This document shows, piece after piece, positions 3,136-42,442 of a stretch of 64,000 nucleotides of DNA. The stretch covers positions 682,001 to 746,000 of the forward strand of contig CP124680.1 of assembly GCA_029961745.1 (NCBI GenBank), given 5' to 3'. The translations under genes and the position numbers were made by a program. Source of the stretch: Nocardioides sp. L-11A. GTDB taxonomy: Bacteria; Actinomycetota; Actinomycetes; Propionibacteriales; Nocardioidaceae. The notes beneath the pieces are model-generated. The model ran no database searches. It worked only from the letters and a program-made list of their open reading frames with translations, and was not told where the DNA came from. Within the stretch, counting starts at the first letter, position 1. Each line of letters opens with the position of its first letter.

Positions 3136-3137
3136 TG

Positions 3138-4224: not shown

Positions 4225-4561
4225 ATATCGCTGCTGCAACGAGAAATCCGAAGTTCTCCGATCTTCTTGCCGGCGGCCTCGTTGTCGGTGACGGAGTGCG
4301 AGGGCGGGATTGTGATCGCTCCGATGCGCCAAGAACCGCAAGGCCCTTGCCGCTGCCCGAGCGGCGGACTTGGATAGGACGCCCGACGCCCCCTAGGCCC
4401 GCCGCCCGGCACATGCGCTGACTACGTCCCGAGTTGCCCGGGGGACTCGTCGCCAGTGAATCTGACAGCGATTCACCTTTCTGCGTCACCCGGGCCACGC
4501 GGCGTCGTTGGACGGGGTGATCGGGGTCACTGTCGTGCGCCCGGAACGCGGAGGTGGAGTC

Positions 4562-18213: not shown

Positions 18214-18233
18214 AGCGTACCGGTGAGTGGAAC

Positions 18234-18253
18234 GCTCGGGTGGTCGCCCGAGC
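18234..18253. promoter_or_regulatory. Inverted repeat GCTCGGG-N6-CCCGAGC, candidate IclR operator
   Basis: Perfect 7-bp arms separated by TGGTCG sit midway between the divergent IclR gene and the hydratase gene. Position fits an operator; the palindrome length is typical for the family. No experiment supports it. Confidence 0.5.
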
Positions 18254-18275
18254 CCGCGGCCCCGAGAGTAGGCGC

Positions 18276-21093: not shown

Positions 21094-21106
21094 GCCCGCA
21101 TCTGCG

Positions 21107-21169
21107 CGTCGTACCGGACAAAACGGTCGCGAATCCGGCGGATTCGCGACCGTTTTGTCCGGTACGACG
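21107..21169. terminator. Bidirectional terminator, perfect 30-bp inverted repeat
   Basis: Arms at 21107-21136 and 21140-21169 are exact complements around a GGC loop. ACAAAA on one arm and TTTTGT on the other place U-rich sequence on both transcripts. It lies between the convergent aldolase and aminotransferase genes. Confidence 0.85.
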
Positions 21170-21177
21170 GGTGCGGG

Positions 21178-22509
21178 TCAGGAGCGCGGGGCCACCATCG
21201 CGGCCGCGAGTTCGGCCAGGCTCTCCCGCAGGATCGTCAGCGCCTCCCGTGCCTCCTCGCGGGTGACCGACATCGGCGGGGTGATCCGCAGGACGTTGCC
21301 GTAGAGGCCGCCGCGACCGATGAGCAGGCCGCGTCGCCGGGCGATCTCCAGGCACGCCGCCGCGGCCTCCGGCGCGACGTCACGGCTGCCGGGACGCACG
21401 AGCTCGACACCGAGCATCAGCCCCATGCCGCGCACCTCGCCGACGACAGGGTTCTCGGCGGCGATCGCCTCCAACTCGCCTCGTAGGTAGCCGCCGACGA
21501 GGTCGGCATTGCGCTGCAGGTCGTGGTCCTCGATGTAGTCGAGGACCGCCAGCGCAGCGGACATCGCGACGGGGTTGCCCCCCGCGGTGGAGATCGAGTT
21601 CGCCTGAAGGCAGTTCATCGTGCGCGCATCGGTGACGACGCCGCCGACAGCCAGGCCGTTGGCCAGTCCCTTGGCGAAGGTGATCGCGTCCGGCCGGACG
21701 TCGTGGGCGTGCATCCCGAAGTAGGCCTTGCCGGTGCGCCCCCACCCCGACTGGACCTCGTCGGAGACCAGGGGGATGTCGTACTGGTCCAGCACCTCCT
21801 TCGCCAGCCGGAAGAAGCCGGGCGGCGGCGTGGCGAAGCCGCCCGCGCCCTGGACCGGCTCGGCCAGCAGGCAGGCGACGCTTCCGCTCGTCGCGGTCTC
21901 GATCATCGTCTTCAGCTCGTCGGCGCAGGCACGGTTGAACTCGTCGTCGGGAAGGTGTCCGAACGGGCTCCGGTACCGGTAGCCGCTGTGCACATACGTG
22001 ACGTTCAGCGGGCTGAGCGAGGTCGCCGACCAGGCCCGGATGCCTGTCGTCGCGACGGTGCCGAAGCTGCGCCCGTGGTAGCTGCCGCGCAGGGCGAGGA
22101 CCTGGTTGCTCCGCTGACGCGTGGTCATCAGCAGCAGCGCCGCCTCGACCGCCTCGCTGCCGGAGTTCACGAAGAACACCCGCGCGTCCGGGATGCCGCT
22201 ACGTGCGGCGATCCGCTCGGCGAGCTCGACCTGCGAGCGGATCAGGTAGAGCGTCGAGGAGTGCAGGATCCGATGGCTCTGCGCCCGGATCGCCTCGCCG
22301 ATCTCCTCGATGTCGTGGCCGACCATCGTCGCCAACAGCCCGCCGAAGAAGTCCAGGTAGGTCCGGCCGTCTCCGCCGACCACGTGCCGGCCCTTGCCGG
22401 ACACGAGCTCCAGCGGCTCCTCGTAGTACAGCGTCATCCAGTCCGGCATGACGTTCCGGTGCCGCTCCAGCAGCGCCGCGTCCGTGCCCGTCCGCTCGTC
22501 CATAGCCAT
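21178..22509 (-). CDS. Class III (aspartate superfamily) PLP aminotransferase
   Basis: A 443-residue aminotransferase related to 4-aminobutyrate and alanine-glyoxylate (AGXT2) transaminases. The PLP lysine is K280 in DAITFAKGLANG, with Asp250 in LVSDEVQSGWGRTG binding the pyridine nitrogen; the phosphate-binding GSEAVEAAL lies at about 117-125. It probably moves an amino group from an omega-amino or beta-amino acid to pyruvate, glyoxylate or 2-oxoglutarate. It is divergent from the 13-gene operon that follows, sharing a 130-base promoter region, so it likely belongs to the same catabolic route. Confidence 0.9.
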   Translation of the reverse strand: MAMDERTGTDAALLERHRNVMPDWMTLYYEEPLELVSGKGRHVVGGDGRTYLDFFGGLLATMVGHDIEEIGEAIRAQSHRILHSSTLYLIRSQVELAERIAARSGIPDARVFFVNSGSEAVEAALLLMTTRQRSNQVLALRGSYHGRSFGTVATTGIRAWSATSLSPLNVTYVHSGYRYRSPFGHLPDDEFNRACADELKTMIETATSGSVACLLAEPVQGAGGFATPPPGFFRLAKEVLDQYDIPLVSDEVQSGWGRTGKAYFGMHAHDVRPDAITFAKGLANGLAVGGVVTDARTMNCLQANSISTAGGNPVAMSAALAVLDYIEDHDLQRNADLVGGYLRGELEAIAAENPVVGEVRGMGLMLGVELVRPGSRDVAPEAAAACLEIARRRGLLIGRGGLYGNVLRITPPMSVTREEAREALTILRESLAELAAAMVAPRS

Positions 22510-22642
22510 GCACGCAACGTAGACGTCCGCTCGTGCGCTCCGGCGTGCATGGTGGGAAATTTCAGATAGTCGAAATCGCCGTTCGCTTTAGGCGCACCAG
22601 CTCGGCGATGTGGTGAGGATCATGCCCCGAGGAGGCACCTTC

Positions 22643-23869
22643 GTGATCGATCTGACAGACCGGGACGTGACCCGGATCCGCGATGCCGTCGACGTGCTGA
22701 GCGCGCCGTTGACCGAGTTGCTGGTGCGGGCCGTCCGCAGTCCCAGCGTGACCGGCGGCGAAGGCGAGGTCGCCGTCTTGCTGCACGAGTGGATGACGGC
22801 GCGCGGCTGGACGCCGACGCTGGTGAGGGTCGAGCCGACCGCGGGCCACGACCGGGCCAATGTCATCGTCCGCCGGGGCGCGGCCGAGGGCCCACTGCTC
22901 GTTCTCAACGGCCACCTCGACGTCGTGCCGCCGGGGCCTGCAGACGCCTGGACGCGCTCGCCGTACTCGGGTCAGGTGGTCGACGGGCGGATCCACGGTC
23001 GCGGCTCGGTCGACATGAAGGGCGGCATCGTGGCCGGCATCGGGGCGCTCCTGGCACTCGAGAGCGCCGGGATCGAGCTCACCCATCAGATCGAGCTCCA
23101 GCTGGTGGTGGGGGAGGAGACGACCGGGGTCGGCACCCGAGAGGCGGTGCGAGCCCTCGACCTCACGGAGGTGGCCGGCGCCATCGTGCTCGAGCCGACC
23201 TGCGGCCGGATCGTCACGGTCAACACCGGCCTCCAGTTCTTCGACGTCCGGGTGAGTGGTCGAGCCGCGCACAGCTCCGCGCCCTGGGAGGGCGTCGACG
23301 CGTTCGCCAAGCTCCTCCTGGTCCGGGAGGCGATGCAGGCCGAGGCGCAGCGACGCTCGGCCCGCTACCGACACCCGCTGCTTGCCGGCGTCCCCGACCC
23401 GATGCCGTTCGTGGTCGGAGAGGTGAGCGCCGGTACCTATCGCGCCGCCGTGCCCGCGCACGCCAGGATGACCGGTCGCTACGGGCTGCAACCGGGGGAG
23501 TCCGTGCGGGAGGCGCGCGCCGCCTTCGCCGCCGCGATCGACGAGATCGCCGACCGGGACCCGTGGCTGCGCGACCACCGGCCCGAGCTGATCTGGGACC
23601 ACATGGGTCTGCCGGGGTGGGACACGGACCAGGACAGCGACGTGGTCCGTGCGTTGGTCCGCGCGCGCGACCTCGCCACCGGAAGCGCGGAGCTGACCGG
23701 ATTTACCGCCGGCTCCGACGCGGCCGTGTACGGCGCCGCGCTGGTCCCGACGGTCGTCTTCGGCCCCGGCGACGTGGCCCTCGCGCATGCGCCCGACGAG
23801 TCGGTGGCGATGGTCGACGTGTTGGAATGCGCAACGACCCTGGCGTTGGCCCTGGCGGGGCTGGCATGA
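22643..23869 (+). CDS. M20-family deacylase (ArgE/DapE-like)
   Basis: A dizinc amidohydrolase of about 408 residues, removing an acyl group from an amine or cleaving a small amide. GTG at 22643 is chosen because GAGGAGG lies at 22628-22634; an ATG at 22622 lacks an RBS. Metal and catalytic motifs are LNGHLDVVPP, GRGSVDMKGG and VVGEETTG; the dimerisation domain follows (GRAAHSSAPWEGVDA) and the last metal His is probably in the ALAHAPDE region. It is the first gene of the operon and overlaps the IclR gene by 4 bases. ArgE/DapE labels describe the fold; with these neighbours an unrelated N-acyl substrate is likely. Confidence 0.88.
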   Translation: MIDLTDRDVTRIRDAVDVLSAPLTELLVRAVRSPSVTGGEGEVAVLLHEWMTARGWTPTLVRVEPTAGHDRANVIVRRGAAEGPLLVLNGHLDVVPPGPADAWTRSPYSGQVVDGRIHGRGSVDMKGGIVAGIGALLALESAGIELTHQIELQLVVGEETTGVGTREAVRALDLTEVAGAIVLEPTCGRIVTVNTGLQFFDVRVSGRAAHSSAPWEGVDAFAKLLLVREAMQAEAQRRSARYRHPLLAGVPDPMPFVVGEVSAGTYRAAVPAHARMTGRYGLQPGESVREARAAFAAAIDEIADRDPWLRDHRPELIWDHMGLPGWDTDQDSDVVRALVRARDLATGSAELTGFTAGSDAAVYGAALVPTVVFGPGDVALAHAPDESVAMVDVLECATTLALALAGLA

Positions 23870-24708
23870 GCGCCTCCAGCACGCTGAGCACGCTCGAGCG
23901 CGGCATCGCGATGCTCGAGTACGTCGCCGAGCACGGCCCGATCACCGCCAAGCGGGTCGCGCGCGAGATGGATCTCAAGACGAGCAGCTGCTATCACGTG
24001 CTGCGCACCCTGGTCGGCTGCGGCTTCCTGGCCCGTCTCGAGGACGGCACCTACGACGTCGGCCCGCGGTCCCACGCCTACGCGAAGGCGGTGCAGGCCA
24101 AGTACGCGATCCAGCCGGAGCTCGCGCTCGTGTTGACGCGGTTGCACAACCTGACTCGGGAGACGGCGTACATCTCCGGGTGGCGCGACGGGAACATCGT
24201 GCTGCTGCACTACATCGCGGGCCTCCATGCGCTCAACGTCGGGCGCCTCGCGGTCGGATACACCGGCGACATGCACGCTCGCGCGTCCTGCAAGGCGGTG
24301 CTCGCCCACCTGCCCGAGGAGCACGTCGCCGCCATGTTCTCGGGAGTGCGCCTGGTCGCGCTCACCGCCAACACGATCACCGACTTCGAGGAGCTCAGGG
24401 TCGAGCTCGTCCAGACCCGGCGCCAGGGCTTCGCGATCGATCGTGAGGAGTACGTCGACGGGGTCAGCTGCGTGTCTGCGCCCTACTTCGACCGCGACGG
24501 CAACCCACTCGGCGCCTTCACGGTCTCGGTGCCGACCGAGCGATTCCAGCGGAGCAAGGCCCGTCTCATCGAGAGCGCGACGCAGGCGGCGTCCATCGCG
24601 ACCCGACTGATGACGACCGGTCGGCTCTCGCTACCCGATCTGTCCGAACCGCCCGACCGAGGCGGCCCGCCACCAGACGGGTCGCACCAACCGATGGAGA
24701 GCAAGTGA
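23866..24708 (+). CDS. IclR-family transcriptional regulator
   Basis: A 280-residue regulator: N-terminal winged helix (SSTLSTLERGIAMLEYVAEH, then ITAKRVAREMDLKTSSCYHVLRTL) and the IclR effector domain with the usual ARASCKAVLAHLP and DREEYVDGVSCVSAPYFD segments. Unlike most IclR genes it is inside the operon, overlapping genes on both sides by 4 bases, so its level should rise with the pathway genes. A Pro/Gly-rich tail of about 25 residues at the C-terminus is unusual. It presumably senses the pathway substrate or an intermediate. Confidence 0.9.
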   Translation: MSASSTLSTLERGIAMLEYVAEHGPITAKRVAREMDLKTSSCYHVLRTLVGCGFLARLEDGTYDVGPRSHAYAKAVQAKYAIQPELALVLTRLHNLTRETAYISGWRDGNIVLLHYIAGLHALNVGRLAVGYTGDMHARASCKAVLAHLPEEHVAAMFSGVRLVALTANTITDFEELRVELVQTRRQGFAIDREEYVDGVSCVSAPYFDRDGNPLGAFTVSVPTERFQRSKARLIESATQAASIATRLMTTGRLSLPDLSEPPDRGGPPPDGSHQPMESK

Positions 24709-25670
24709 GCAATGAGGAACGGGTGGCCGCACTGACGGTCCACCTGGAGCAGATGGTGCGGATCCGTCAGTTCGAGGAGAAGGTCCAGGAACTGCGGGCG
24801 CGCGAGGAGATCGTCGGCTCGGTGCACCTGTGCAACGGCCAGGAGGCGATCTACGTCGGCTCCTGCGCCGCACTCGACCTGACCCGCGACGCGGTCTTCC
24901 CGACCTATCGCGGGCACGGCTGGGCGATCGCCTGCGGTGTGCCGCTGGTTCAGCTGTTCGGCGAGCTGATGGGCCGCACGGTCGGCGTCAACGGCGGACG
25001 CGGCGGCTCGGCGTACTTCACGGCCCCCGACTACGGCATGTACGGCGAGAACTCGATCGTGGGCGCCGGTGCCCCGATCGCGGCCGGCGCGGCGCTCGCC
25101 GCTACTTTCGACGGTTCCGGCCGGGTCGCGGTCGCAGCGTTCGGCGATGGCGCCATGAACCAGGGCTCGGTGCACGAGGCGATGAACTTCGCGGCTGTGC
25201 GCTCGCTGCCGGTCATCTTCGTCGTGGAGAACAACAGCTACTCCGAGCTCACCCCGATCGCGAGCATGGTGCGCATCGAGCGACTGTTCAAGCGAGCTGC
25301 CGGCTACGGCATGCCCGGGGCGCGGGTCGACGGCAACGACCCCGAGGCGGTCGCGTCCGCGATGAGCCAGGCCACCGAGCGCGCGCGCAAGGGCGCCGGT
25401 CCGGTCCTGCTCGAGATGCTCACCCAGCGTCTGGTCGGCCACTACATCGGCGACGCTCAGCAGTACCGGCCGGCCGGTGAGGTCGAGGCCTCGATGGCCG
25501 CCGAGCCGATCGGTCGCCTCACCCGTGTGCTGGCCGGGCTCGGCGCGAGCGCCGACGTACTGCGGGAGGTGGAGGCCCGGGTCTCGGCCGAGGTGGCCGC
25601 GGCCGTCGCCGAGGCCACGGCCGCCCCGCTGACCGACCCCACGAGCGTCCTGGAGCACCTCTATGCCTGA
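24705..25670 (+). CDS. Thiamine-diphosphate dehydrogenase E1 alpha subunit (AcoA-like)
   Basis: A 321-residue E1-alpha chain of the pyruvate/acetoin/branched-chain oxo-acid dehydrogenase family. The ThDP and Mg motif is GDGAMNQGSVHEAMNFA (about 147-163) continuing to ENNSYSE; the channel region CNGQEAIYVGS and YRGHGWAIACG are also present. GTG at 24705 overlaps the IclR gene by 4 bases and the stop overlaps the beta gene by 8. It should pair with the next protein to decarboxylate a 2-oxo acid. No lipoyl E2 or E3 gene is in the operon, so the acceptor is unclear. Confidence 0.93.
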   Translation: MSNEERVAALTVHLEQMVRIRQFEEKVQELRAREEIVGSVHLCNGQEAIYVGSCAALDLTRDAVFPTYRGHGWAIACGVPLVQLFGELMGRTVGVNGGRGGSAYFTAPDYGMYGENSIVGAGAPIAAGAALAATFDGSGRVAVAAFGDGAMNQGSVHEAMNFAAVRSLPVIFVVENNSYSELTPIASMVRIERLFKRAAGYGMPGARVDGNDPEAVASAMSQATERARKGAGPVLLEMLTQRLVGHYIGDAQQYRPAGEVEASMAAEPIGRLTRVLAGLGASADVLREVEARVSAEVAAAVAEATAAPLTDPTSVLEHLYA

Positions 25671-26688
25671 GCTGACCACGCCGACGGAGATCCGCACCGA
25701 GACCCTGTCGTATGCCGAGAGCGTCAACGCCGCATTGCGACGGGCGCTGACCGATTGGCCCGAGGCCCTCCTCTTCGGTGAGGACGTCGCCTTGCCCGGT
25801 GGCGTCTTCGGAGTGACCAAGGGCCTGCGCCGGCTGTTCGGCGAGCGCGTCTTCGACACGCCGATCTCCGAGTCGGCCATCCTGGGTGGGGCCGTCGGCT
25901 CGGCGATGATGGGTGCCCGTCCGATCGTGGAGATCATGTGGGCCGACTTCGCCCTCGTCGCCTTCGACCAGATCGCCAACCAGGCGGCGAACGTCCGCTA
26001 CGTGTCGCGTGGCCGGCTGTCGGCTCCGCTCACCATCCGCACCCAGCAGGGCTCCGCTCCCGGCGCGTGCGCCCAGCACTCGCAGTCGCTCGAGGCGCTG
26101 TTCGCGCAGATCCCAGGGATCAACGTCTGCATGCCGGTGACTCACCAGGATGCCTATGACCTGACGCTCGCGGCGATCGCCGACGACGACCCGACGGTGA
26201 TCATCGAGAACCGGACGCTCTATCACGGACGCAAGGAGAGCATCCTCACCGGCGGTCCCGTCGAGCCGATCGGCGGCGCGGCCATCCGTCGGCCCGGCAG
26301 CGACGTGACGTTGGTGACCTGGGGCTCGATGCTCCACCAGGCGCTCGCCGCCGCCGAGTCCGCCGCGGCGGAGGGCATCGACGTCGAGGTGGTCGACCTG
26401 CGCTGGATCCGTCCTTTCGACGCCGACACCGTGCTCGGCAGCATCGAGCGCACCCGTCGGGTCGTGATCGCTCACGAGGCCCATACCTTCGGGGGCTTCG
26501 GCAGCGAGATCTCGGCGCAGGTCGCGGAGGCCGGGATCGCTCTGCGCGTGCCGCTGGTGCGGGTCGGGACGCCGCCCACGCGGATCCCCGCCGCCGTGCA
26601 GCTGGCGGGCGCGGTCGTCCCGGACGCCTCCCGCATCCTCGACGCGCTGCGCCGTGCTGCCCACGACGTTGCGGTGACCGTCGCATGA
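25663..26688 (+). CDS. Thiamine-diphosphate dehydrogenase E1 beta subunit (AcoB-like)
   Basis: A 341-residue E1-beta chain with the expected transketolase-like pyrimidine domain (FGEDVALPGGVFGVTKGL, FDTPISESAILGGAVGSA, IMWADF) and C-terminal transketolase domain (GSMLHQAL, DLRWIRPFD). It overlaps E1-alpha by 8 bases and the next gene by 4, so the subunits are translationally coupled. Together they form an alpha2beta2 oxo-acid decarboxylase; the oxo acid could be the product of the neighbouring aminotransferase, which is inference. Confidence 0.93.
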   Translation: MPELTTPTEIRTETLSYAESVNAALRRALTDWPEALLFGEDVALPGGVFGVTKGLRRLFGERVFDTPISESAILGGAVGSAMMGARPIVEIMWADFALVAFDQIANQAANVRYVSRGRLSAPLTIRTQQGSAPGACAQHSQSLEALFAQIPGINVCMPVTHQDAYDLTLAAIADDDPTVIIENRTLYHGRKESILTGGPVEPIGGAAIRRPGSDVTLVTWGSMLHQALAAAESAAAEGIDVEVVDLRWIRPFDADTVLGSIERTRRVVIAHEAHTFGGFGSEISAQVAEAGIALRVPLVRVGTPPTRIPAAVQLAGAVVPDASRILDALRRAAHDVAVTVA

Positions 26689-27479
26689 CGCCCCTGTCGA
26701 TGCCCGCCTTCGCTCCGCTGTTCCGCGCGGGGGAGGAGACGGTCGGCGTCCGCTGGCTGACCGTCGTGTACGACGTCGACGCCGATGTCGCGCGCCGGGC
26801 GCTCCCGGCACCTCTCAGCCTGCCCGACCGGCCGCGGGCGGCGCTCTGGCTCGGTGAGTTCAGCAACGCCACCTTCGACGACGGCAAGGGCGCCGACGTA
26901 CGGCCGCCGTACTTTCAGGGCGGGGTCTCGCTCGCCTGCGCGAGAGACGGCGTGCCCGGCGCGTACGCCCTCGAGACGTTCGTGGCCGGTCTCAACCACG
27001 GCATCCTCGGCCGCGAGCTGTTCGGTCTGCCGAAGAAGCAGGTCCGTCAGGTCGAGCTGCTCGAGGCGGACGGGCGTATCTCCTTCGCGATCGTGAGCGC
27101 CTCCGATCTGCGGCTGCTGCGCGGCGCCTCTGTCGATGTCGACGAGACGGCCGGGACCGAGCTCGTGCCGTCCTGGTTCGGCGAGCACCACACCGCGAAG
27201 GTGATACCCAGCGCCGACGGGCGCGGGTACGACGTGTGCCGTCTGGTCCGGCTTCCGTGGACCTTCGCCGACGCCAGGGTCGTGCAGACAGGCCGGGCCG
27301 AGCTCCATTGGGGCCGAAGCGTCTCGGATCCTCTCTACCTTCTCGCCGAGCGTCCGAGCGGCGGGTTCGCGTACGGCGAGGCGACGCTGCGGATCGAGTA
27401 CGGCACCTATGTCGCCGAGTTGGACCTGCCCGAGCCCCTCGGGCAGGAGCAATGGGCCCGTGACGAGGTCCGGCGATGA
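26685..27479 (+). CDS. Acetoacetate decarboxylase-fold protein
   Basis: A 264-residue member of the acetoacetate decarboxylase (ADC) superfamily. The Schiff-base lysine region is recognisable as GRELFGLPKKQ (about residues 107-117), following ETFVAGLNHGILG. ADC enzymes decarboxylate beta-keto acids, but family members also do aldol-dehydration or hydration, so the reaction here is open. It is coupled to E1-beta and to the next SnoaL-like gene by 4-base overlaps. Confidence 0.85.
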   Translation: MTPLSMPAFAPLFRAGEETVGVRWLTVVYDVDADVARRALPAPLSLPDRPRAALWLGEFSNATFDDGKGADVRPPYFQGGVSLACARDGVPGAYALETFVAGLNHGILGRELFGLPKKQVRQVELLEADGRISFAIVSASDLRLLRGASVDVDETAGTELVPSWFGEHHTAKVIPSADGRGYDVCRLVRLPWTFADARVVQTGRAELHWGRSVSDPLYLLAERPSGGFAYGEATLRIEYGTYVAELDLPEPLGQEQWARDEVRR

Positions 27480-27961
27480 CCAGCACGGCCCTTCGCCGGC
27501 TCGAGCATCGGGTGGCGATCGAGGAGTTGCACGGCCGCTACGCCGAGCTGTGCGACCAGGGCTTCCCGCCCGACCGGATTGCCGACCTGTTCGTCGCGGA
27601 CGGCGTGTGGGAGAGCGCGCCGAACGGAGTGATCCGGCGCGGTCGCGACGAGATCGCCGAGCATTTCCGCGTGGCCGGGGCGGCGTATCCCTGGGCGCTG
27701 CACGTCAACGTGCCGGTGCGGATCACGCTCGCCGAGGGCGAGCGGCACGCGACCGGCGTCTGGTATCTGCTGATGCCCTGCGTCGACGAGACCGCCGGTA
27801 CGGCGCGAGCGGGCTGGCTCGCGGGCCGTTACGACAACGAGTTCGTGTGGCGTGACGGTTGCTGGCGGTACCGGCGGATCCACGTCGACTTCGGCCTGAT
27901 GGCCCACCACCTCGGCGACTGGTCACAGGACCGCTACTCGCTCGCCGCCCACGACGGCTAG
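27476..27961 (+). CDS. SnoaL-like (NTF2-fold) protein, first copy
   Basis: A 161-residue small alpha+beta barrel protein of the SnoaL_4 type. The opening RLEHRVAIEELHGRYAELCD and the FVADGVWES segment are typical. Such proteins act as dehydratases, isomerases or small-molecule-binding subunits with no fixed catalytic motif. It overlaps the ADC-like gene by 4 bases, and a paralogue of the same length lies further down the operon (31692-32177). A 70-base gap follows before the transporter genes. Confidence 0.85.
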   Translation: MTSTALRRLEHRVAIEELHGRYAELCDQGFPPDRIADLFVADGVWESAPNGVIRRGRDEIAEHFRVAGAAYPWALHVNVPVRITLAEGERHATGVWYLLMPCVDETAGTARAGWLAGRYDNEFVWRDGCWRYRRIHVDFGLMAHHLGDWSQDRYSLAAHDG

Positions 27962-28031
27962 GACAGACCTCTTGCCGGCTCGGCGGCCTCGCACGCGCCG
28001 GCACCGCCCGGGAGAACCTCAAGGAGATCGC

Positions 28032-29174
28032 ATGAACACCCACCACCTTCGGCCCGCTCGCGGTCGTCGCCCGGCCCGCGGCCTGCTCGCTGTCGGTCTG
28101 CTGGTCACGCCTCTGCTCGCGGCCTGCCAGTCCGCGGGTGCCGGTGGCGGCGGCTCGGATGCTGACGCGGCCGCCATCGTCAAGGAGTCAGACGCCCGGG
28201 TGAAGGCCGCGATGGCTGACGTCACCACCGGTGCGCCGTCGTCGAGCCCGCCGGTCCAGAAGGACAAGTTCGTCATCATGATCCCGTGCTCGGTCGCCTC
28301 CGAGGGCTGCGCCCAGCCGGCGCGGGCAGCCTTGGACGCTGCCGAGGAGATCGGCTGGCGGGCCCAGATGATCGACGGCAAGGACACCGCTGACACGCAG
28401 AACGCCGCGGTCCGGCAGGCGCTGGCTCTGAAGCCCGACGGCATCATCACCTTCGCCATCAACCCGAAGACCATTCAAGGAGCGCTGGACGAGGCTCGCC
28501 GTCAGGGAGTGAAAGTCGTCGCGTCGTCGGCGACGAAGTCGGACCTGGTCGACTTCTCCGACAACCCCTCGACCGAGGCCTGGAAGTTGAGTGGATCGCT
28601 GCTCGCCGACTACGCGATCACCCGGACGAAAGGGAGGGTGAAGGCACTGGTGCTGCACGACACCGGCTTCGACGTGCTCGTGGACCGGCACGGTGCGTTC
28701 GTCGATCGGCTGAGGGAGTGCAAGACCTGCACCATCCAGGAGGACCAGACCTTCACGTTCTCCGACCTGGCCAACTCCGTGCCGCGCCTCGTACAGCAGA
28801 TGGCCCAGCGTCACCCCGACTTCAACACCATCTACATCGACTACGACTACGCCGTGCCGGCGGTGCTCCAAGGACTCCGCTCGATCGGGACCGAGGGCAA
28901 GGTCGTCCTGGGATCCGACGGGACGTCGGCCGCGATCCAGCTGATCCGCGAGGGCGGCGGCCAGTCGGCGACGACCGCGTTCGCGCTCGGGTGGATCGGC
29001 TGGTCGGACGTGGACGCGCTCAACCGGATCTTCGCCGGAGAGAGCCCGGAACCCGCCGCCGAGGTCATCGGCGTCAAGCTGATCGATCAGAGCATTGCTC
29101 AGGACATCGACGGACTCTGGGGCGGCGACGTCGACTACGAGGCGGCGTACCGGACGCTCTGGAAGGTCGGCTGA
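28032..29174 (+). CDS. Ribose-type ABC substrate-binding lipoprotein, copy A
   Basis: A 380-residue periplasmic-binding-protein family member (RbsB-like). ATG at 28032 follows AAGGAG at 28021-28025/6. The signal peptide ends in the lipobox LLAAC, so it is membrane-tethered. Two Rossmann-like lobes are suggested by FVIMIPCSVASEGCAQPARAA and VKALVLHDTGFDVLVDRH. It overlaps the ATPase gene by one base. A clear paralogue closes the operon (34613-35743), sharing segments such as QNAAVRQALALKPDGIIT; the pair may bind related ligands or different affinities of one ligand. Confidence 0.92.
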   Translation: MNTHHLRPARGRRPARGLLAVGLLVTPLLAACQSAGAGGGGSDADAAAIVKESDARVKAAMADVTTGAPSSSPPVQKDKFVIMIPCSVASEGCAQPARAALDAAEEIGWRAQMIDGKDTADTQNAAVRQALALKPDGIITFAINPKTIQGALDEARRQGVKVVASSATKSDLVDFSDNPSTEAWKLSGSLLADYAITRTKGRVKALVLHDTGFDVLVDRHGAFVDRLRECKTCTIQEDQTFTFSDLANSVPRLVQQMAQRHPDFNTIYIDYDYAVPAVLQGLRSIGTEGKVVLGSDGTSAAIQLIREGGGQSATTAFALGWIGWSDVDALNRIFAGESPEPAAEVIGVKLIDQSIAQDIDGLWGGDVDYEAAYRTLWKVG

Positions 29175-30694
29175 TGACCACGGCGAGCGTCGAGCTCATC
29201 GGCATCACCAAGCGCTTCGGCGGTCAGACGGCGCTGGACGGAGTCTCGATCGGCTTCGGAAGGGGCGAGATCCACGGCCTGGCGGGAATGAACGGCTCGG
29301 GGAAGTCGACCCTGGTCAAGATCCTGGCGGGCGTCTACACCCCCGACGAGGGCACGCTTCGCTTCGGGACCGAGTCGCACCGCTCGCTCACCCCGGCCAA
29401 GGCGACCGAGCTCGGGCTCCGCGTGCTCCACCAGGATCCGGCGGTCTTCCCGACGATGACGGTGGCGGACAACATCTCGCTCGGCTCCTTCTACGGACGC
29501 AGCAGGGCGACGCGGGTGCGGGTCGGGCGCGAGCGTGAGCTCAGCCGCGAGGTGCTCACCCGCCTCGGCATCGAGGGCGTCGACCCGCGCGCGGTACTCG
29601 GGGAGCTCTCGCCCACCGAGCGGACCATGGTCGCCATCGCCCGTGCCGTCCAGGATCTCGACGACCGGGGACTACTGGTCCTCGACGAGCCGACCGCCTC
29701 CCTGCCCGAGCACGAGGCGTCCCTCGTCACCGACCTGGTACGGCGGGTCGCCGAGCGCGGGATACCGGTGCTCTACATCACCCACGACCTGGCCGCCCTG
29801 ATCGAGCTCTCCGACCGGGTGTCGGTGCTGCGCGACGGCCGGCTGGTGGGGAGTGAGTCGGCCAGCACGACCACGGAACGTGAACTGGCTGACCTGATGG
29901 CCGGCGGTGACACGGCCCACCGGTCCGTCGTACGTGTCGCCTCGACACGCGGCGGCGAGCCGACCCTGGTCTGCGCCGGGGTCACGGGCGGCCGGGTTCG
30001 CGACCTGGACCTGCAGGTGCAGGCGGGTGAGGTGGTCGGGATCGCCGGACTGCTCGGCTCCGGCAGAAGCACCCTGCTCCGGATGATCGCCGGCGCGCAG
30101 GGACGCGAAGGCGGCCGGGTCGTCGTCGGTGGCAGGAGCGTGCCCGGCGGCAGTCCGCGGGTCGCGCGGAGCAACGGCATCGCGTTCGTGCCGGAGGACC
30201 GGCGTGGCCAGGCGGCTTTCGCCGGCATGACGCTGTCGGAGAACCTGACGATCGCCGCACTGCCGGAGCTGTCGCGCCCGTGGTGGATCAGGGCCCGGAG
30301 CGAGCGCCGGAGGACCGCCGAGTCGATGGAGGCTCTCGACATCCGCCCACGGATGCCCGAGCGCAGATTCGCCCTGCTCAGCGGCGGCAACCAGCAGAAG
30401 GCGATCATCAGCCGCTGCGCTCAGACCCGGCCGTCGGTCCTCCTGCTCGACGAGCCGACCCAGGGCGTCGACGTGCACGCCCGCCAGCAGATCCACGCGA
30501 CCGTGCGGCAGATGGCCGCCGACGGGATGGCCGTCGTAGCCGTCTCATCGGACATCGGCGAGCTGATCACGATCAGCGACCGGATCCTCGTGATGCGGCG
30601 CGGCGCGATCAGGGCGGCCCTCCCCAACGAGGGACTCAACGAGACAGACGTGCTGCATCTCGCGGCAACCAACGAAAGGCCGGAAGACAAGTGA
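29174..30694 (+). CDS. Ribose-type ABC transporter ATP-binding protein, two nucleotide domains
   Basis: A 506-residue fused ATPase (RbsA/MglA-like). Domain one has Walker A GMNGSGKST (about 36-44), the degenerate signature ELSPTERTMVAIARA and Walker B LLVLDEPTASLPE. Domain two has a variant Walker A LLGSGRSTLL, signature LLSGGNQQKAIISR and Walker B VLLLDEPTQGVD. Domain one's weak signature is usual for the family. It energises uptake through the permease encoded next, which it overlaps by 4 bases. Confidence 0.95.
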   Translation: MTTASVELIGITKRFGGQTALDGVSIGFGRGEIHGLAGMNGSGKSTLVKILAGVYTPDEGTLRFGTESHRSLTPAKATELGLRVLHQDPAVFPTMTVADNISLGSFYGRSRATRVRVGRERELSREVLTRLGIEGVDPRAVLGELSPTERTMVAIARAVQDLDDRGLLVLDEPTASLPEHEASLVTDLVRRVAERGIPVLYITHDLAALIELSDRVSVLRDGRLVGSESASTTTERELADLMAGGDTAHRSVVRVASTRGGEPTLVCAGVTGGRVRDLDLQVQAGEVVGIAGLLGSGRSTLLRMIAGAQGREGGRVVVGGRSVPGGSPRVARSNGIAFVPEDRRGQAAFAGMTLSENLTIAALPELSRPWWIRARSERRRTAESMEALDIRPRMPERRFALLSGGNQQKAIISRCAQTRPSVLLLDEPTQGVDVHARQQIHATVRQMAADGMAVVAVSSDIGELITISDRILVMRRGAIRAALPNEGLNETDVLHLAATNERPEDK

Positions 30695-31695
30695 CCACCG
30701 AGATCAGTGAGACTCAGGTGCCCGAGGTCCACGCCGCCCAGGAGGGACCTGCCCGGCGCGGCGCCGGCGGCCTCGTCCACCCACGCTGGTTCGGGTTCTA
30801 CGGCGTGGTGGGAGTCGTCGTCCTCTTCAGCGTGCTGCTGCCGGTCACCTATCCCACGATGACCAACCTGACCGCCGTGCTCGGAAACGAGGCGGTCGGC
30901 CTGATCCTCGCCATCGCGATCCTGATTCCGGTCGTGGCCGGCTACTTCGACCTGTCGGTCGCGAGTGTGCTGACGCTGTCGATGATCGTGTCGATCGGCT
31001 GCTTCCAGTTCTTCGAGACCCCGACGCCCGTCGCCTGTCTGGCGGGCGTCCTGATCGGCTCGTTGTTCGGACTGGTCAACGGGTTCTGCGTGGCGTGGCT
31101 CGAGATCAACGCCATGGTCGCCACGCTCGCCACCGGCAGCATCGCGCTCGGCATCGCGCTGTGGTGGACCAACGGCTCGATCTTCGCCGAGAACGTGCCG
31201 CCGGGTTTCCGCAGCCTGGGCGACCGGGTCGGTCCGGTACCGCTTCCGATCGTGTACGCCGGCGTCTTGTGCCTCCTCGCATGGTGGATCCTGGAGAAGA
31301 CGCCGACCGGACGCTACCTCTACGCCATGGGCGACGGACCTGTTGCCGCCCGTCTGGTCGGACTGCCGACGACGACGCTCACCGTCGGCTCGTTCGTCGC
31401 GTCCGGCACGGTGGCCGGGGTGGCCGGTGTCGTCGAGGCGGCGATCCTCGGGTCGGGCAACCCCCAGGTGGGTGCGGGCTTCCTGCTGCCCGCCTTCGCC
31501 GCGGTGTTCCTCGGCGCCGCGATCTACACGATCGGCCGCTACAACGTGATCGGGACCGTGGTCGCGGTCCTCATCCTGGCGGCACTAGTCGCGGGCCTGC
31601 AGCAGCTCGGCCTGCCGTTCTACATCGAGTCGCTGCTCAAGGGCGGCGTCCTGCTCGTGGCCGTCGCGCTCACCAGCGGCAGGTTCAGCCGATGA
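30691..31695 (+). CDS. Ribose-type ABC transporter permease
   Basis: A 334-residue RbsC-like inner-membrane permease with about eight to ten hydrophobic helices. GTG at 30691 overlaps the ATPase stop. The family motifs GYFDLSVASVLTLSM (near 90) and the cytoplasmic loop TPTGRYLYAMGDGPVAARLVGLP are present. Only one permease gene is in the operon, so it would form a homodimer. It overlaps the following SnoaL-like gene by 4 bases. Confidence 0.95.
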   Translation: MTTEISETQVPEVHAAQEGPARRGAGGLVHPRWFGFYGVVGVVVLFSVLLPVTYPTMTNLTAVLGNEAVGLILAIAILIPVVAGYFDLSVASVLTLSMIVSIGCFQFFETPTPVACLAGVLIGSLFGLVNGFCVAWLEINAMVATLATGSIALGIALWWTNGSIFAENVPPGFRSLGDRVGPVPLPIVYAGVLCLLAWWILEKTPTGRYLYAMGDGPVAARLVGLPTTTLTVGSFVASGTVAGVAGVVEAAILGSGNPQVGAGFLLPAFAAVFLGAAIYTIGRYNVIGTVVAVLILAALVAGLQQLGLPFYIESLLKGGVLLVAVALTSGRFSR

Positions 31696-32177
31696 CGGGC
31701 GACCTCGCCGCGCAGGTCGAGCGGCTCGGCCGGCAGGTCGACCTGCTCAAGGCCGAAGCTGCTGTCCACCGGCTCAAGCGTCGCTACGCCCAGCTCTGCG
31801 ACGAGGGATACGACGGTGCTGCTCTCGCTGCGCTGTTCGCCCCCGATGGCAGCTGGAGCAGCGACCACGACGGTCCGTTCACCGGCCGCGCGGCCATCGC
31901 CGACTTCCTCGCGACGGTGGGCGCCGACCGGTTCTCCTGGGCGGCGCACTACCTCGCCAACGGCTCTGTCGACATCGACCTCGACGCCGGAACCGCTGAC
32001 GGGAGGTGGGAGCTGGTGCAGCTCGCCACCGACCGGCGAGCAGCACCGGGACCGGCAGGCTCGGTGGTCGCCACCGGCACCTACCGTGATCGCTTCGTCT
32101 GCGTGGACGGGGCGTGGCTGATCGCGTCGCTGGAGCTCCGGCTGCACCGGCTCACCGATCTCGGGGCGGGATGGTGA
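31692..32177 (+). CDS. SnoaL-like (NTF2-fold) protein, second copy
   Basis: 161 residues, the same length as the copy at 27476-27961 and similar in design (AAVHRLKRRYAQLCDEGYD, LFAPDGSWSSD, GRAAIADFLATVG). It begins at ATG 31692, overlapping the permease stop. Two divergent copies in one operon suggest either a heterodimer or consecutive steps on related intermediates. The reaction is unknown. Confidence 0.82.
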   Translation: MTGDLAAQVERLGRQVDLLKAEAAVHRLKRRYAQLCDEGYDGAALAALFAPDGSWSSDHDGPFTGRAAIADFLATVGADRFSWAAHYLANGSVDIDLDAGTADGRWELVQLATDRRAAPGPAGSVVATGTYRDRFVCVDGAWLIASLELRLHRLTDLGAGW

Positions 32178-33589
32178 GCGCCGTGGAGCCGCCGGAGGGT
32201 GTCGTCGCCGACCTCGTCGCTGCCGGTGAGCACCTCCCGGCAGTGCCTGCGCTCGCGCTGACGCCGACCGTGGAGCGGGAGGTGCGAGCCGGCGCGCGGT
32301 CTGACGACCCGTGGAACGCGGTGCGCCGGTGGATCTCGGTGCGTGGTGACCGGACCGGTGCGTTGTCCGGACTCCGGGTCTCGCTCAAGGACTCGGTCGC
32401 GATCGGTGGGGTGCCGCTGACCTGCGGCTCGGCGGCCCTGCCCGACTTCATACCGTCGGGTGACGCCTCGGTCGTGCGGGAGTTGTTGGACGCCGGTGCC
32501 GAACTGGTTGCCGTCACCACGATGGACGACCTCGCCTTCTCCGGTGGTGGCGACTCGTGCGTCGACGGCCCCGTGCTCAACCCGCACGACCCGACCCGCA
32601 GCGCGGGCGGCTCGTCCAGCGGTGCCGCGGCCTCTCTGCACCTCGACGGCGTCGATGTCGCGATCGGCACCGACCAGGGCGGTTCGTCGCGTGTCCCAGC
32701 GTCGTGGTGCGGGGTTCTCGGGCTCAAGCCGACCCGCGGTCTGGTGCCGTACACCGGGGTGGTGCCGGGAGAGCCCAGCCTCGACCACATCGGTCTGCTC
32801 GCGCGCACGACCGGCGTGCTGCGCCGAGTGCTGGGTGTGGTCGCCATCGACGACGGGACCGATCTGCGCCAGCGCGGCGTGCCCCGTCTCTCGGAGTCGA
32901 CGTCCGCCGGTCCGCTAGGCGCTCGGGCCGTCGTGCTGCGCGCTCTGGTCGACCGGTCGGCGCCCGAGGTCGCCGCGGCATTTCGTCGCGACTGCGACGC
33001 CGTCCGGGCCCTGGGGGTGAACGTGGTCGAGACCGACCTCGATCCCGATGCCTTCGGCCCGGTCGCCGCCGGGCTGTTCGTCGAGGGGCTGGCAGCCACG
33101 CTGGCCGGTACGGCGTCCGGATTCGGGCACCGGCACGTCGAGTGGCGTGAGCTCACCCGCGCGCTCGAGGACGGAGTGCGCCGGCACGAGGAGCGGCTCA
33201 GCCTCGCCGTACGCGTGACGCTGGCCGCGGCGCGCACGCTCGCTCGGACCCGTCCGGGTGAGGCCTACAGTCGGGCCGCCGCGCAGGCGGGAGCATTGAC
33301 CGCCGCGTTCACGGCGCTGCTCGCCGAGTTCGACTTCGTGCTCACCCCGACCACACCGTTCCCGCCGTTTCCGGTGATGGCCGCTGGACCGGAGGACCAG
33401 GTGCGCCGCGGCTGGGCGGTCCTGGGCAACACCGGCTTCGCCAACGTGACCGGCCAGCCGGCGCTCTCCGTCCCGCTCTCGCTCGCCGACGGGATGCCCT
33501 CCGGGCTCCAGATCGTCGGCGCGCACGGCACCGACCTGCGGCTGCTGGACCTGGCCGCCGCCCTACTCCAGGAGGCTCCACGTGATTGA
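32171..33589 (+). CDS. Amidase signature family hydrolase
   Basis: A 472-residue amidase with the Ser-cisSer-Lys triad: Lys in SLKDSVAIGG (about 75), cis-Ser in GGSSSGAAASL (about 147) and the nucleophile in GTDQGGSSRVPA (about 172). Related to GatA and to many catabolic amidases. ATG 32171 or GTG 32174 are both possible starts; the second would give the 4-base overlap usual in this operon. The stop overlaps the next gene by 8 bases. It probably hydrolyses an amide bond in the imported compound or an intermediate. Confidence 0.92.
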   Translation: MVSAVEPPEGVVADLVAAGEHLPAVPALALTPTVEREVRAGARSDDPWNAVRRWISVRGDRTGALSGLRVSLKDSVAIGGVPLTCGSAALPDFIPSGDASVVRELLDAGAELVAVTTMDDLAFSGGGDSCVDGPVLNPHDPTRSAGGSSSGAAASLHLDGVDVAIGTDQGGSSRVPASWCGVLGLKPTRGLVPYTGVVPGEPSLDHIGLLARTTGVLRRVLGVVAIDDGTDLRQRGVPRLSESTSAGPLGARAVVLRALVDRSAPEVAAAFRRDCDAVRALGVNVVETDLDPDAFGPVAAGLFVEGLAATLAGTASGFGHRHVEWRELTRALEDGVRRHEERLSLAVRVTLAAARTLARTRPGEAYSRAAAQAGALTAAFTALLAEFDFVLTPTTPFPPFPVMAAGPEDQVRRGWAVLGNTGFANVTGQPALSVPLSLADGMPSGLQIVGAHGTDLRLLDLAAALLQEAPRD

Positions 33590-34616
33590 GCAGACCCCGA
33601 TCCCGCGCCTGATGCGCGCCGCCGTGTGCGAGGGCGGCCCCGGCGGCCGGGTGGTAGTGCGCGAGGTCCCGGTGCCGGTGCCCGGCCCGGGTGAGGTACT
33701 GCTGCGCGTCGACCGCGCGGGACTCAACCGGCACGACCTCTTCGTGCTCGACCGCGCGGACGACACCGTGCGCGGACTCGTGCTCGGCTCCGACGCCGTA
33801 GGCGAGGTCGTGGCGTGCAGTCCCGGCGTCGACGACGCGATGCTCGGTCGCAGCGTCATCGTCAACCCCTGCCTGGGCTGGTCCGACCCGGCCCGGCCTC
33901 CCTTGGTCCCCGAGGTGCTGGGCGATCCGCGACCTGGCACCCTCGCCGAGTACGTCGCCCTGCCATGGGAGAACGTCGTCCCCGCGCCTGCCCACCTAAA
34001 GCCCGACGAGGCCGCCGGGCTCGGGCTCGCGGCGATGACGGCGTACCGCGCACTGTTCAGTCAGGGTGGCGTCGCCGACGGGACCCGGGTGCTGATCACC
34101 GGCGCCGGCGGTGGGGTCGCCGGCCTCGCGATCACCTTGGCGCACGCCGCGGGTGCCTGGGTGGCGACCACCTCCCGCTCGACACGGGCGCTCGAGCATG
34201 CAGCCGCGCTCGGCGCGGACGCGGGCGTGCTCGACGCCGCAGACTGGTCCGCCGAGCTCGGCGCCGTCGACGTCGTCCTCGACTCGGTCGGCGCGCCGGC
34301 CTTCCCCCGCGCGCTGCGCGCACTGCGGCCGGGAGGGCGGCTCGTCAGCTTCGGCGCGACGGTCGGGGCGTTGACGGCGCTCGACCTGCGGGATCTGTTC
34401 TTCCGGCAGGTCTCGGTGACGGGGAGCTCGATGGCGAGCGCCCCGGAGTTCGCCGCGATGCTCGCCTTCGTCGAGCGTCATCGGATTCGTCCGCCGGTCG
34501 GCGCGGTCCACGACCTGGACGACGTGGAGACCGCGTTGGCCGACCTTCGCGATGGCGCCTCTCTCGGGAAGGTCGTCGTCCGTATCACCCGCACTGCTAC
34601 TGAGGAGAAGCGTTGA
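33582..34616 (+). CDS. Medium-chain dehydrogenase/quinone oxidoreductase family
   Basis: A 344-residue NAD(P)H-dependent MDR protein. GTG at 33582 has AGGAGG at 33570-33575 and overlaps the amidase stop. The GroES-like N-terminal domain (VPVPGPGEVLLRVDRAGLNRHDL) is followed by the nucleotide-binding motif ITGAGGGVAGLAI (about 165-177). The cysteine and histidine ligands of zinc-dependent alcohol dehydrogenases are not in place, so it is more like quinone oxidoreductase or enoyl reductase types. It is coupled to the second binding lipoprotein by a 4-base overlap. Confidence 0.88.
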   Translation: MIEQTPIPRLMRAAVCEGGPGGRVVVREVPVPVPGPGEVLLRVDRAGLNRHDLFVLDRADDTVRGLVLGSDAVGEVVACSPGVDDAMLGRSVIVNPCLGWSDPARPPLVPEVLGDPRPGTLAEYVALPWENVVPAPAHLKPDEAAGLGLAAMTAYRALFSQGGVADGTRVLITGAGGGVAGLAITLAHAAGAWVATTSRSTRALEHAAALGADAGVLDAADWSAELGAVDVVLDSVGAPAFPRALRALRPGGRLVSFGATVGALTALDLRDLFFRQVSVTGSSMASAPEFAAMLAFVERHRIRPPVGAVHDLDDVETALADLRDGASLGKVVVRITRTATEEKR

Positions 34617-35743
34617 CTCGAACGAACAGGATGACGATCCGACTCACTCTGGCCGGCACAGCCCTCGTAGTTCTGAGCGCCTGCGGCGAGGGGGCCGGCG
34701 GCGGCAGCGGGGATATCGACCAGGAGAGCGTCGCCGCCGCTTCGCAACGGGTGGCGTCGGCGCGCGACGCGTTGCCTGCCGACCTGCCTGATGCGCCGAT
34801 CGAGGCGCCCACGGACCGTTTCGTGGCTGTCGTGGCGTGCAACGCCGCGCAGCCCGGCTGCGCAGACCCGGCCCGGGGTGCGGTCGAGGCGCTCGAGGCG
34901 GCCGGACTCCGCGCCAAGCTGATCGATGGACAGGGCACCAGCGACAAGCAGAACGCCGCCATCCGGCAGGCCCTGGCACTGCGCCCGGACGGGATCATCA
35001 CCTCTGCGATCGACCCCGAGACCGTGCAGCAGGCGTTGGGGGAGGCGCGGCGCCAGGGTGTCGCGGTCGTCAGTCTCGCCGCGCTGGGCGAGAGCGAGCT
35101 CGTGGATGCCAACGTCGGACCGACCGTCGCCGACTACACGGCGACCGGCACTCTCCTGGCCGACCTCGCGATCACCGAACAGAAGGGTGCGGTCAAGGCG
35201 CTGGTCCTGCATGACGAGGGTTTCGCCGTGCTCGAGCCCCGCTTCCGAGGCTTCGTCGAAGGACTGGACGCGTGCTCGTCGTGCGAGGTCTTGGAGGAGC
35301 AGACCTTCACCTCGGCGGACCTGGCCGTCGGCGTCCCGCGCCTGGTCCAGCAGCTCGTCCAGCGTCACCCCGACGTCAACACCTTCTACGTCGACTACGA
35401 CGACGCGGTGCCGCCACTGCTGCAGGGCCTGCGGTCGGTGGGCCGTGACGACGTACTCGTGCTCGGTTCGAACGGCACGGTGGACGCGACCCAGTGCATC
35501 GCCTCGGACTGCGGTCAGGCCGCGACGACCGCGTTCTCGCTCGACGGCATCGGCTGGGCCGCGGCGGACAGCATGCTGCGCGTGCTCGCCGGCAGCCCGG
35601 CGTCGGACGCCGTCTACGGTCTCGGAGTGAAGCTCATCGACGCAGAGGTGGCTCGTGCAGTCGTCGACTCGTCGGAGAACGGGATGTGGGACGGTGACGT
35701 CGACTACCGCGCGGCGTACCTCGCGCTGTGGGGCGCGGCCTGA
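34613..35743 (+). CDS. Ribose-type ABC substrate-binding lipoprotein, copy B
   Basis: A 376-residue paralogue of the binding protein at 28032-29174, with a lipobox VLSAC. The TTG at 34613 is taken as start because GAGGAG precedes it and TTGA overlaps the previous stop like other junctions here; ATG 34631 is an alternative. Shared blocks with copy A include KQNAAIRQALALRPDGIIT and VKALVLHDEGF. It differs by several extra cysteines (CASDCGQ, ACSSCE) that could form disulphides. It ends the operon, an odd place for a second receptor, and suggests gene duplication with ligand divergence. Confidence 0.9.
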   Translation: MTRTNRMTIRLTLAGTALVVLSACGEGAGGGSGDIDQESVAAASQRVASARDALPADLPDAPIEAPTDRFVAVVACNAAQPGCADPARGAVEALEAAGLRAKLIDGQGTSDKQNAAIRQALALRPDGIITSAIDPETVQQALGEARRQGVAVVSLAALGESELVDANVGPTVADYTATGTLLADLAITEQKGAVKALVLHDEGFAVLEPRFRGFVEGLDACSSCEVLEEQTFTSADLAVGVPRLVQQLVQRHPDVNTFYVDYDDAVPPLLQGLRSVGRDDVLVLGSNGTVDATQCIASDCGQAATTAFSLDGIGWAAADSMLRVLAGSPASDAVYGLGVKLIDAEVARAVVDSSENGMWDGDVDYRAAYLALWGAA

Positions 35744-41692: not shown

Positions 41693-41798
41693 CTCCCCTC
41701 CTCCACTCCGGACCGTGACGAACGAACTCCCCAGCTCCACGCCGCCGGGGCCCAGCAGAGGGGGCGTGGCCGGACCGAGCCGGCCCCGCCCCCAGCGG

Positions 41799-42362: not shown

Positions 42363-42442
42363 CTTCTTCTCTCACTCATCTGTGGACCTTCGAACGTCAC
42401 TGCCGGCCGCCCGTCCGCGCGGGCCACGGGCCGGCTCCGGCA

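What the first reader, a model, noticed from the sequence alone, without database searches (positions are those of the whole stretch)
22643..35743. Thirteen-gene, tightly coupled catabolic operon with an unassigned substrate
Nearly every junction is a 1-8 base overlap from M20 deacylase through IclR, stand-alone E1 alpha/beta, ADC-fold protein, two SnoaL-like proteins, a ribose-type importer with two receptors, amidase and MDR reductase. A class III aminotransferase is divergent. The combination reads as import, amide/acyl hydrolysis, deamination, oxidative decarboxylation, but I know of no described pathway with this exact gene set.
Basis: partly seen in the sequence, partly recalled or inferred. 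Interest (0 to 1): 0.75.

Follow-up and report, generated by a model that had tools for sequence, protein, structure and literature searches.

The report
Acquired amine-breakdown operon, substrate unknown
A soil bacterium carries a compact, switchable set of fourteen genes that came in as one block and appears to import and break down a nitrogen-containing compound; its seven-gene core occurs in several distant actinobacteria, but what it eats is still unknown.

Summary
In detail: thirteen plus-strand genes at 22643-35743, 11 of 12 junctions overlapping by 1-8 bases. The divergent class III aminotransferase (21178-22509) belongs to the unit.

New findings. (1) Insertion: a relative has the empty site; homology stops at window 21099 and resumes at 35751. 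(2) A core of aminotransferase, M20, IclR, E1 alpha, E1 beta, ADC-fold and MDR was present in 6 of 6 ADC-bearing loci examined. Importer, SnoaL pair and amidase are an exchangeable front end; three loci carry a symporter, RidA and a class V PLP protein instead. (3) One operator-like motif tops a leave-one-out scan in 6 of 6 loci and is unique in this genome. (4) Aminotransferase kin, 55-62% identical, lie within 3.5 kb of dihydropyrimidinase- or beta-ureidopropionase-cluster genes in 6 of 12 loci, hinting at beta-amino-acid chemistry. (5) The ADC-fold protein keeps the Schiff-base lysine but has Gln for Glu76; the MDR lacks zinc ligands; E1 has no E2 in the operon.

Substrate unassigned; no matching pathway found in the papers searched. 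A new variant of a known kind.

The parts
21178..22509 (-). class III aminotransferase (AT3), divergent, core gene
   Evidence: PF00202 283 bits; 70-72% identical in 5 of 5 other loci
22558..22577 (+). putative IclR operator AATTTCAGATAGTCGAAATC in the divergent gap
   Evidence: only match to the 18-base pattern with up to 3 mismatches in 5.68 Mb, reversed control 0; best leave-one-out site in 6 of 6 loci lies in this region
22643..23869 (+). M20 metallo-hydrolase, ArgE/DapE family, core gene
   Evidence: PF01546; TIGR01910 230.9 bits over cut-off 217.6; both scanned from GTG 22610
23866..24708 (+). IclR-type regulator, core gene
   Evidence: PF01614, PF09339 (longer ORF)
24705..25670 (+). E1 alpha, thiamine-diphosphate enzyme, core gene
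   Evidence: PF00676 263.5 bits; GDG..N motif kept
25663..26688 (+). E1 beta, core gene
   Evidence: PF02779, PF02780
26685..27479 (+). acetoacetate-decarboxylase-fold protein, core gene; Lys117-Lys118 kept, Glu76 replaced by Gln78
27476..27961 (+). SnoaL_4 protein 1 (front end)
   Evidence: PF13577; Tyr22, Asp27, His76 invariant in 3 of 3 aligned
28032..29174 (+). lipoprotein receptor 1 of ribose-type importer (front end)
   Evidence: PF13407; lipobox read by eye
29174..30694 (+). importer ATPase (front end)
   Evidence: PF00005, 2 stretches (longer ORF)
30691..31695 (+). importer permease (front end)
   Evidence: PF02653 (longer ORF)
31692..32177 (+). SnoaL_4 protein 2 (front end)
   Evidence: PF13577 (longer ORF)
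32171..33589 (+). amidase-signature hydrolase (front end)
   Evidence: PF01425 257 bits; nearest solved sequence 3a1k, 'Amidase'
33582..34616 (+). MDR reductase without the usual zinc ligands, core gene
   Evidence: PF00107, PF08240; A[GS]LNRH and G[SA]D at the usual ligand places in 5 of 5 aligned (zinc motif recalled)
34613..35743 (+). lipoprotein receptor 2 (front end), 50% identical to receptor 1
   Evidence: PF13407
21100..35750 (.). inserted block of 14,651 bases: AT3 plus the 13-gene operon
   Evidence: empty site in L127; lower GC3 than flanks

Best explanation
It is a horizontally acquired, IclR-switched catabolic cassette. Shown: gene set, operon structure, insertion, recurring core, shared operator-like motif. 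Inferred: a ribose-type importer with two receptors brings in an amide- or acyl-bearing amine; amidase and the M20 hydrolase cut the amide bonds; the divergent aminotransferase, kin of enzymes found near dihydropyrimidinase and beta-ureidopropionase genes, removes the amine of a beta-amino-acid-like product; the ADC-fold protein (Schiff-base lysine) and the stand-alone E1 (thiamine diphosphate) cleave carbon-carbon bonds of the resulting oxo compound; SnoaL proteins and the zinc-less MDR handle dehydration and enone reduction. The 7-gene core does the common chemistry; the front end adapts it to different starting compounds. IclR binds the motif in the divergent gap and controls both directions.
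For: Overlapping genes. Core of 7 in 6 of 6 ADC-bearing loci examined: window, Microbacterium plasmid, Streptomyces plasmid, R. jostii RHA1 pRHL1, Rhodococcus JS3073 plasmid (syntenic with RHA1), unnamed G472. Same front end as the window in Microbacterium; MFS symporter, RidA and class V PLP protein in RHA1, Streptomyces and G472. By equal contig length, 14 of 43 ADC homologues share a contig with one of the 120 listed of 2930 AT3 homologues, 7 of 43 with one of 28 receptor homologues. Operator. Insertion (composition 91, 122). AT3 kinship. No E2 in the operon; 3 of the genome's 5 E3-binding-domain loci have an E1 beta beside them, only 35-44% identical to this one. ADC residues and fold; MDR.
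Against: No substrate, ligand or activity was tested. AT3 identity to the pyrimidine-context group is only 55-62%, the core AT3s group apart from it, and 6 of the 12 fetched kin loci show no such neighbour, so specificity may have moved. The dehydratase role of SnoaL rests on a weak match (BaiE 19.7 bits, E 0.0061) and recalled residues. E1 could borrow an E2 from one of five loci, and a more distant E1 relative (Shinella HZN7, 47%) does have one. The loci were chosen by having the ADC gene, and the operator sites were first picked by eye; when both Rhodococcus records are left out, their second site ranks below off-target sites in RHA1. Different hydrolases and PLP proteins between loci may mean different substrates, not one core chemistry. 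Other stretches of the window also have low GC3.
Confidence: 0.5

Rival explanations
1. Front end opens a nitrogen ring: SnoaL and amidase act on a lactam or ring-cleavage amide, and the core degrades the opened chain.
For: An Actinomadura locus has SnoaL, then amidase (42%), then E1 alpha/beta, with two luciferase-type monooxygenases and a cytosine/purine-type permease. A Paracoccus plasmid has an FAD hydroxylase, fused E1, IclR, RidA, a class III aminotransferase of another clade (30%), an amidase (27%) and an importer.
Against: No oxygenase in the window operon, nor among the assigned genes of the RHA1, Streptomyces and G472 clusters; the importer is of ribose type.
Confidence: 0.22
2. Classical route: AT3 makes an oxo acid, ADC is a true beta-oxo-acid decarboxylase, and E1 works in an ordinary oxo-acid dehydrogenase complex with E2/E3 from elsewhere.
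For: E1 alpha and beta match pyruvate/branched-chain E1 models and structures; 5 loci with an E3-binding domain in the genome; Schiff-base lysine kept.
Against: No E2 in the window operon nor between AT3 and the last core gene in RHA1 and G472, where every gene was assigned; ADC has Gln for Glu76 in 36 of 36 aligned homologues; E1 alpha and beta stay below the curated cut-offs of their best models.
Confidence: 0.2
3. Degradation of pantothenate or another N-(hydroxyacyl)-beta-alanine: hydrolase frees beta-alanine for AT3; the acid part goes through ADC and E1.
For: AT3 kinship; a hydrolase, an aldolase-type fold and an oxo-acid E1 would fit; the protein behind pantothenase activity is said to be unknown (PMC10393543, passages seen).
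Against: No alcohol dehydrogenase in the operon that would oxidise pantoate; the MDR is zinc-less. RidA/class V PLP and SnoaL are unexplained. Nothing links the cluster to pantothenate directly.
Confidence: 0.1
4. Two separate functions happen to be joined: a core for one compound and an importer-amidase set for another.
For: Front end and core are separable between loci.
Against: Interleaved order in the window and one operator-like site for all 14 genes; Microbacterium has the same combination in another order.
Confidence: 0.08

Closest known systems
Reductive pyrimidine catabolism (dihydropyrimidinase, beta-ureidopropionase, beta-alanine aminotransferase)
   Same: Aminotransferase of a related clade; amide hydrolysis before deamination
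   Different: No dihydropyrimidinase or CN_hydrolase gene in this operon; adds E1, ADC-fold and MDR
Acetoin dehydrogenase / 2-oxo-acid dehydrogenase E1 (AcoAB, PDH, BCKDH)
   Same: Two-chain E1 with intact thiamine-diphosphate motif
   Different: No E2 or E3 in the operon; four of the next nearest plasmid loci looked at have fused E1 chains with SDR, IclR or small accessory proteins
ADC superfamily: acetoacetate decarboxylase, MppR, Streptomyces bingchenggensis aldolase-dehydratase
   Different: Glu76 replaced by Gln; 14-21% identity in the structural alignments
R. jostii RHA1 pRHL1 cluster and Microbacterium NIBRBAC000506063 plasmid cluster
   Same: Same 7-gene core and operator-like motif
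   Different: RHA1 uses a symporter, RidA and class V PLP protein; no paper on either cluster came up in my searches

Membership tests
Acetoacetate decarboxylase | Schiff-base lysine (Lys115) and its neighbour | tested here: met
   Lys117-Lys118 align to Lys115-Lys116 of 3bh2 and are invariant in 36 of 36
Acetoacetate decarboxylase | Glu76 (role recalled) | tested here: not met
   Gln78 at this place, invariant in 36 of 36
ADC superfamily | fold | tested here: met
2-oxo-acid dehydrogenase complex | E2 with lipoyl/E3-binding domain encoded with E1 | tested here: not met
   All 13 operon genes assigned, none is E2; E3-binding-domain loci lie elsewhere
2-oxo-acid dehydrogenase complex | activity with CoA and lipoyl E2 | not testable with these tools
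   needs enzyme assay
Reductive pyrimidine catabolism | dihydropyrimidinase and beta-ureidopropionase genes with the aminotransferase | tested here: not met
   absent from the window operon; members of these clusters lie within 3.5 kb of AT3 kin in 6 of 12 fetched loci
Zinc-dependent MDR alcohol dehydrogenase | catalytic zinc ligands Cys and His (recalled motif) | tested here: not met
   A[GS]LNRH and G[SA]D at these places in 5 of 5 aligned
Ribose-type ABC importer | receptor, double ATPase and BPD_transp_2 permease together | tested here: met
   PF13407, PF00005 in 2 stretches, PF02653
Ribose-type ABC importer | sugar as ligand | not testable with these tools
   needs binding assay
IclR-controlled catabolic operon | regulator gene plus conserved motif in the control region | tested here: met
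   6 of 6 loci; binding itself not tested
Pantothenate degradation | pantothenate hydrolysis | not testable with these tools
   protein behind the activity said to be unknown (PMC10393543, passages)

The most novel reading that the evidence does not exclude
A not yet described, transferable catabolic pathway in which a beta-amino-acid-type transaminase feeds a paired Schiff-base (ADC-fold) and stand-alone thiamine-diphosphate (E1) carbon-carbon cleavage system, with interchangeable front ends that let distant actinobacteria apply one core to different amide compounds, possibly including N-acyl-beta-alanines such as pantothenate.
Probability: 0.3. Interest if true: 0.72.

Novelty: new variant of a known kind. 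Interest (0 to 1): 0.5.

Why it matters
A tightly bounded 14-gene cassette with a single operator-like site and an empty-site relative makes an unassigned catabolic pathway directly testable: induce, delete, or move it. The same core sits on a plasmid of the well-known strain R. jostii RHA1, so an assignment would carry over to several genera, and it would show whether two-chain E1 and ADC-fold enzymes act as a stand-alone cleavage pair.

Tried and rejected
Substrate by literature: ten full-text searches gave no matching pathway. I saw listings and abstract starts where there were any, and passages of one paper, PMC10393543; no other paper was opened.

Pantothenate was at first attractive and was lowered after the MDR proved zinc-less. 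A tetracycline-type reading of the Paracoccus cluster was considered because two MFS proteins match Tet efflux models, but at 137 and 169 bits against a cut-off of 475, so it was dropped. The hydratase-aldehyde dehydrogenase-aldolase genes upstream (18240-21093) were considered as part of the pathway; they occur in the relative without the 14-gene block and are treated as separate.

Searches that found little: ADC in 198 family genomes, 1 hit, the window's own; 394 class genomes, 2 hits, one the window's own; 15 genomes of G472's genus, 1 hit, itself; 118 genomes of another genus with the RHA1 protein, 0 hits and no positive control inside. Amidase in genome contigs gave 9 loci; Actinomadura and 7 others were compared with the window's genes and only Actinomadura had E1 nearby; the short L015 was not compared. 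Amidase in 396 phylum genomes hit 23, the window's own included, at 35-40% identity for the others; their neighbourhoods were not looked at. Two aminotransferase relatives on plasmids (Streptomyces BHT-5-2 57%, Nonomuraea 51%) showed no other core gene within about 8 kb, apart from a second, 32% identical aminotransferase in Nonomuraea. A class V PLP relative of the RHA1 one was not found in this genome beyond 26-34% partial matches. Sigma-70-type promoter scan: none found, 0.5 expected.

Composition: my first comparison used 25 flanking genes that I picked by hand (0.955, p 4e-7), leaving out low-GC3 ORFs at 2440-4341, 40523-45238 and others. With all 43 flanking ORFs of the rule the mean is 0.921, median 0.946, p 0.0015. 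It is support only.

Rows to distrust: the Streptomyces class V PLP row was out of frame and was ignored; the Nonomuraea row of the tree held a stop sign and has a long branch; Microbacterium and Streptomyces copies hold frame breaks, left as they are. MFS, RidA and class V genes were not looked for in JS3073.
Full report
Observation. The window comes from a Nocardioides: its aminotransferase is 98% identical to one of Nocardioides sp. BYT-33-1. The thirteen genes are present in the stated order with no internal stops, and 11 of 12 junctions overlap by 1-8 bases; the exception is 70 bases between the first SnoaL protein and receptor 1. Pfam assigns every gene. Ten of the fourteen proteins were scanned with NCBIfam. 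Only the M20 hydrolase passed a curated cut-off (ArgE/DapE deacylase) among the families shown, so precise functions do not follow for the others.

It came in as a block. In a close relative (G1308, locus L127) the upstream genes, peptidase S15, IclR, hydratase, aldehyde dehydrogenase and aldolase, are followed directly by the SIP gene. DNA similarity stops at window 21099 and resumes at 35751, so 14,651 bases are extra here. They hold exactly the divergent aminotransferase and the thirteen genes. Third-position G+C averages 0.896 in these 14 genes; 43 flanking ORFs of the window have mean 0.921 and median 0.946 (Mann-Whitney p 0.0015), and 25 hand-picked flanking genes 0.955. Some other stretches of the window are also low, so this is support only. 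Of the six relatives fetched, three (L129, L130, L132) have the S15 peptidase next to SIP without the hydratase block either; L128 ends at the contig edge and L131 showed neither. The spot has thus probably taken up genes at least twice.

The core. The records are Streptomyces sp. NBC_00046, R. jostii RHA1 pRHL1, Rhodococcus sp. JS3073 (syntenic with RHA1, so not independent), and Microbacterium sp. NIBRBAC000506063. The aminotransferase is 70-72% identical in all five, the highest of the core genes in each. Of these five only the Microbacterium plasmid also has the ribose-type importer, receptors, SnoaL pair and amidase. RHA1, Streptomyces and G472 have instead an MFS symporter nearest to the metabolite/H+ (ProP) group but below its cut-off, a RidA protein and a class V PLP protein; JS3073 was not checked for these. 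By equal contig length, 14 of 43 ADC homologues share a contig with one of the 120 listed of 2930 aminotransferase homologues, and 7 of 43 with one of 28 receptor homologues; one of each is the near-identical strain. The cassette is rare: the ADC protein was found in 1 of 198 genomes of the family and 2 of 394 of the class, the window's own included in both.

The switch. The gap between the aminotransferase and M20 holds AATTTCAGATAGTCGAAATC. In the 5.68-Mb genome this is the only match to the 18-base pattern with up to three mismatches, and the reversed pattern gives none. Similar sites were first seen by eye in the corresponding gaps. In a leave-one-out scan the best site of each of 6 whole loci lay in that region. 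For G472 the region includes iclR, and its best site lies within the last 30 bases of iclR, just upstream of M20; its second is in the gap beside the aminotransferase. The second RHA1 site ranks only fifth in this test. No other site over the threshold lies in the window. Binding by IclR is inferred.

What the aminotransferase is. Kin are widespread (48 of 391 order genomes and 24 of 396 phylum genomes at E 1e-150, the window included in both). I fetched 12 kin loci (55-62% identical). In 6 of them a member of the dihydropyrimidinase cluster (5 loci) and/or of the CN_hydrolase cluster (3 loci) lies within 3.5 kb. One member of each cluster was identified: closest to D-hydantoinase/dihydropyrimidinase structures (1yny, 537 bits), and to N-carbamoylputrescine amidohydrolase and beta-ureidopropionase structures. 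This suggests beta-alanine-type substrates. The core enzymes group apart from these kin, so the substrate may differ.

Mechanism. Import, amide hydrolysis and transamination are the best supported steps, all by family and context. Carbon-carbon cleavage by ADC-fold and E1 is inference. The substrate is not assigned. The ring-opening, classical dehydrogenase, pantothenate and two-function rivals are listed with their tests.

Verdict. A real, bounded, recurring and probably co-regulated cassette made of known enzyme kinds in a combination for which no published pathway was found here. The library lacks most subscription journals, so 'unpublished' is not shown.

Noticed in passing
window 17443-21093: IclR, FAH-type hydratase, acetylating aldehyde dehydrogenase and DmpG-type aldolase look like a second acquired block at the same site, absent between S15 peptidase and SIP in three of six relatives fetched.
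   Followed up: partly
window 21100-21178: Hairpin with 29 unbroken pairs between the convergent aldolase and aminotransferase ends, -67 kcal/mol, z -10.9; perhaps a two-way terminator.
   Followed up: partly
L127 11860-11980: The empty site holds three direct copies and part of a fourth of a 32-base unit where the block is missing (read by eye).
   Followed up: no
L063 (Paracoccus denitrificans plasmid): Two MFS proteins weakly Tet-like, FAD hydroxylase, fused E1, IclR, RidA, a different class III aminotransferase, amidase and branched-chain-type importer stand together.
   Followed up: partly
L059, L060, L061: Fused alpha-beta E1 chains, two of them beside muconolactone-isomerase-family proteins, with SDR and, variously, IclR, inosose dehydrogenase or Rieske genes.
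   Followed up: no
window 28032-29174 and 34631-35743: The receptors share four cysteines (Cys86, Cys93, Cys230, Cys233 of receptor 1), invariant in 3 of 3 aligned.
   Followed up: no
L046: Many genes of the Microbacterium plasmid cluster are split by frame breaks, by assembly error or decay.
   Followed up: no
L008 (Actinomadura chibensis): SnoaL, amidase and E1 alpha/beta with two luciferase-type monooxygenases and a cytosine/purine-type permease.
   Followed up: partly
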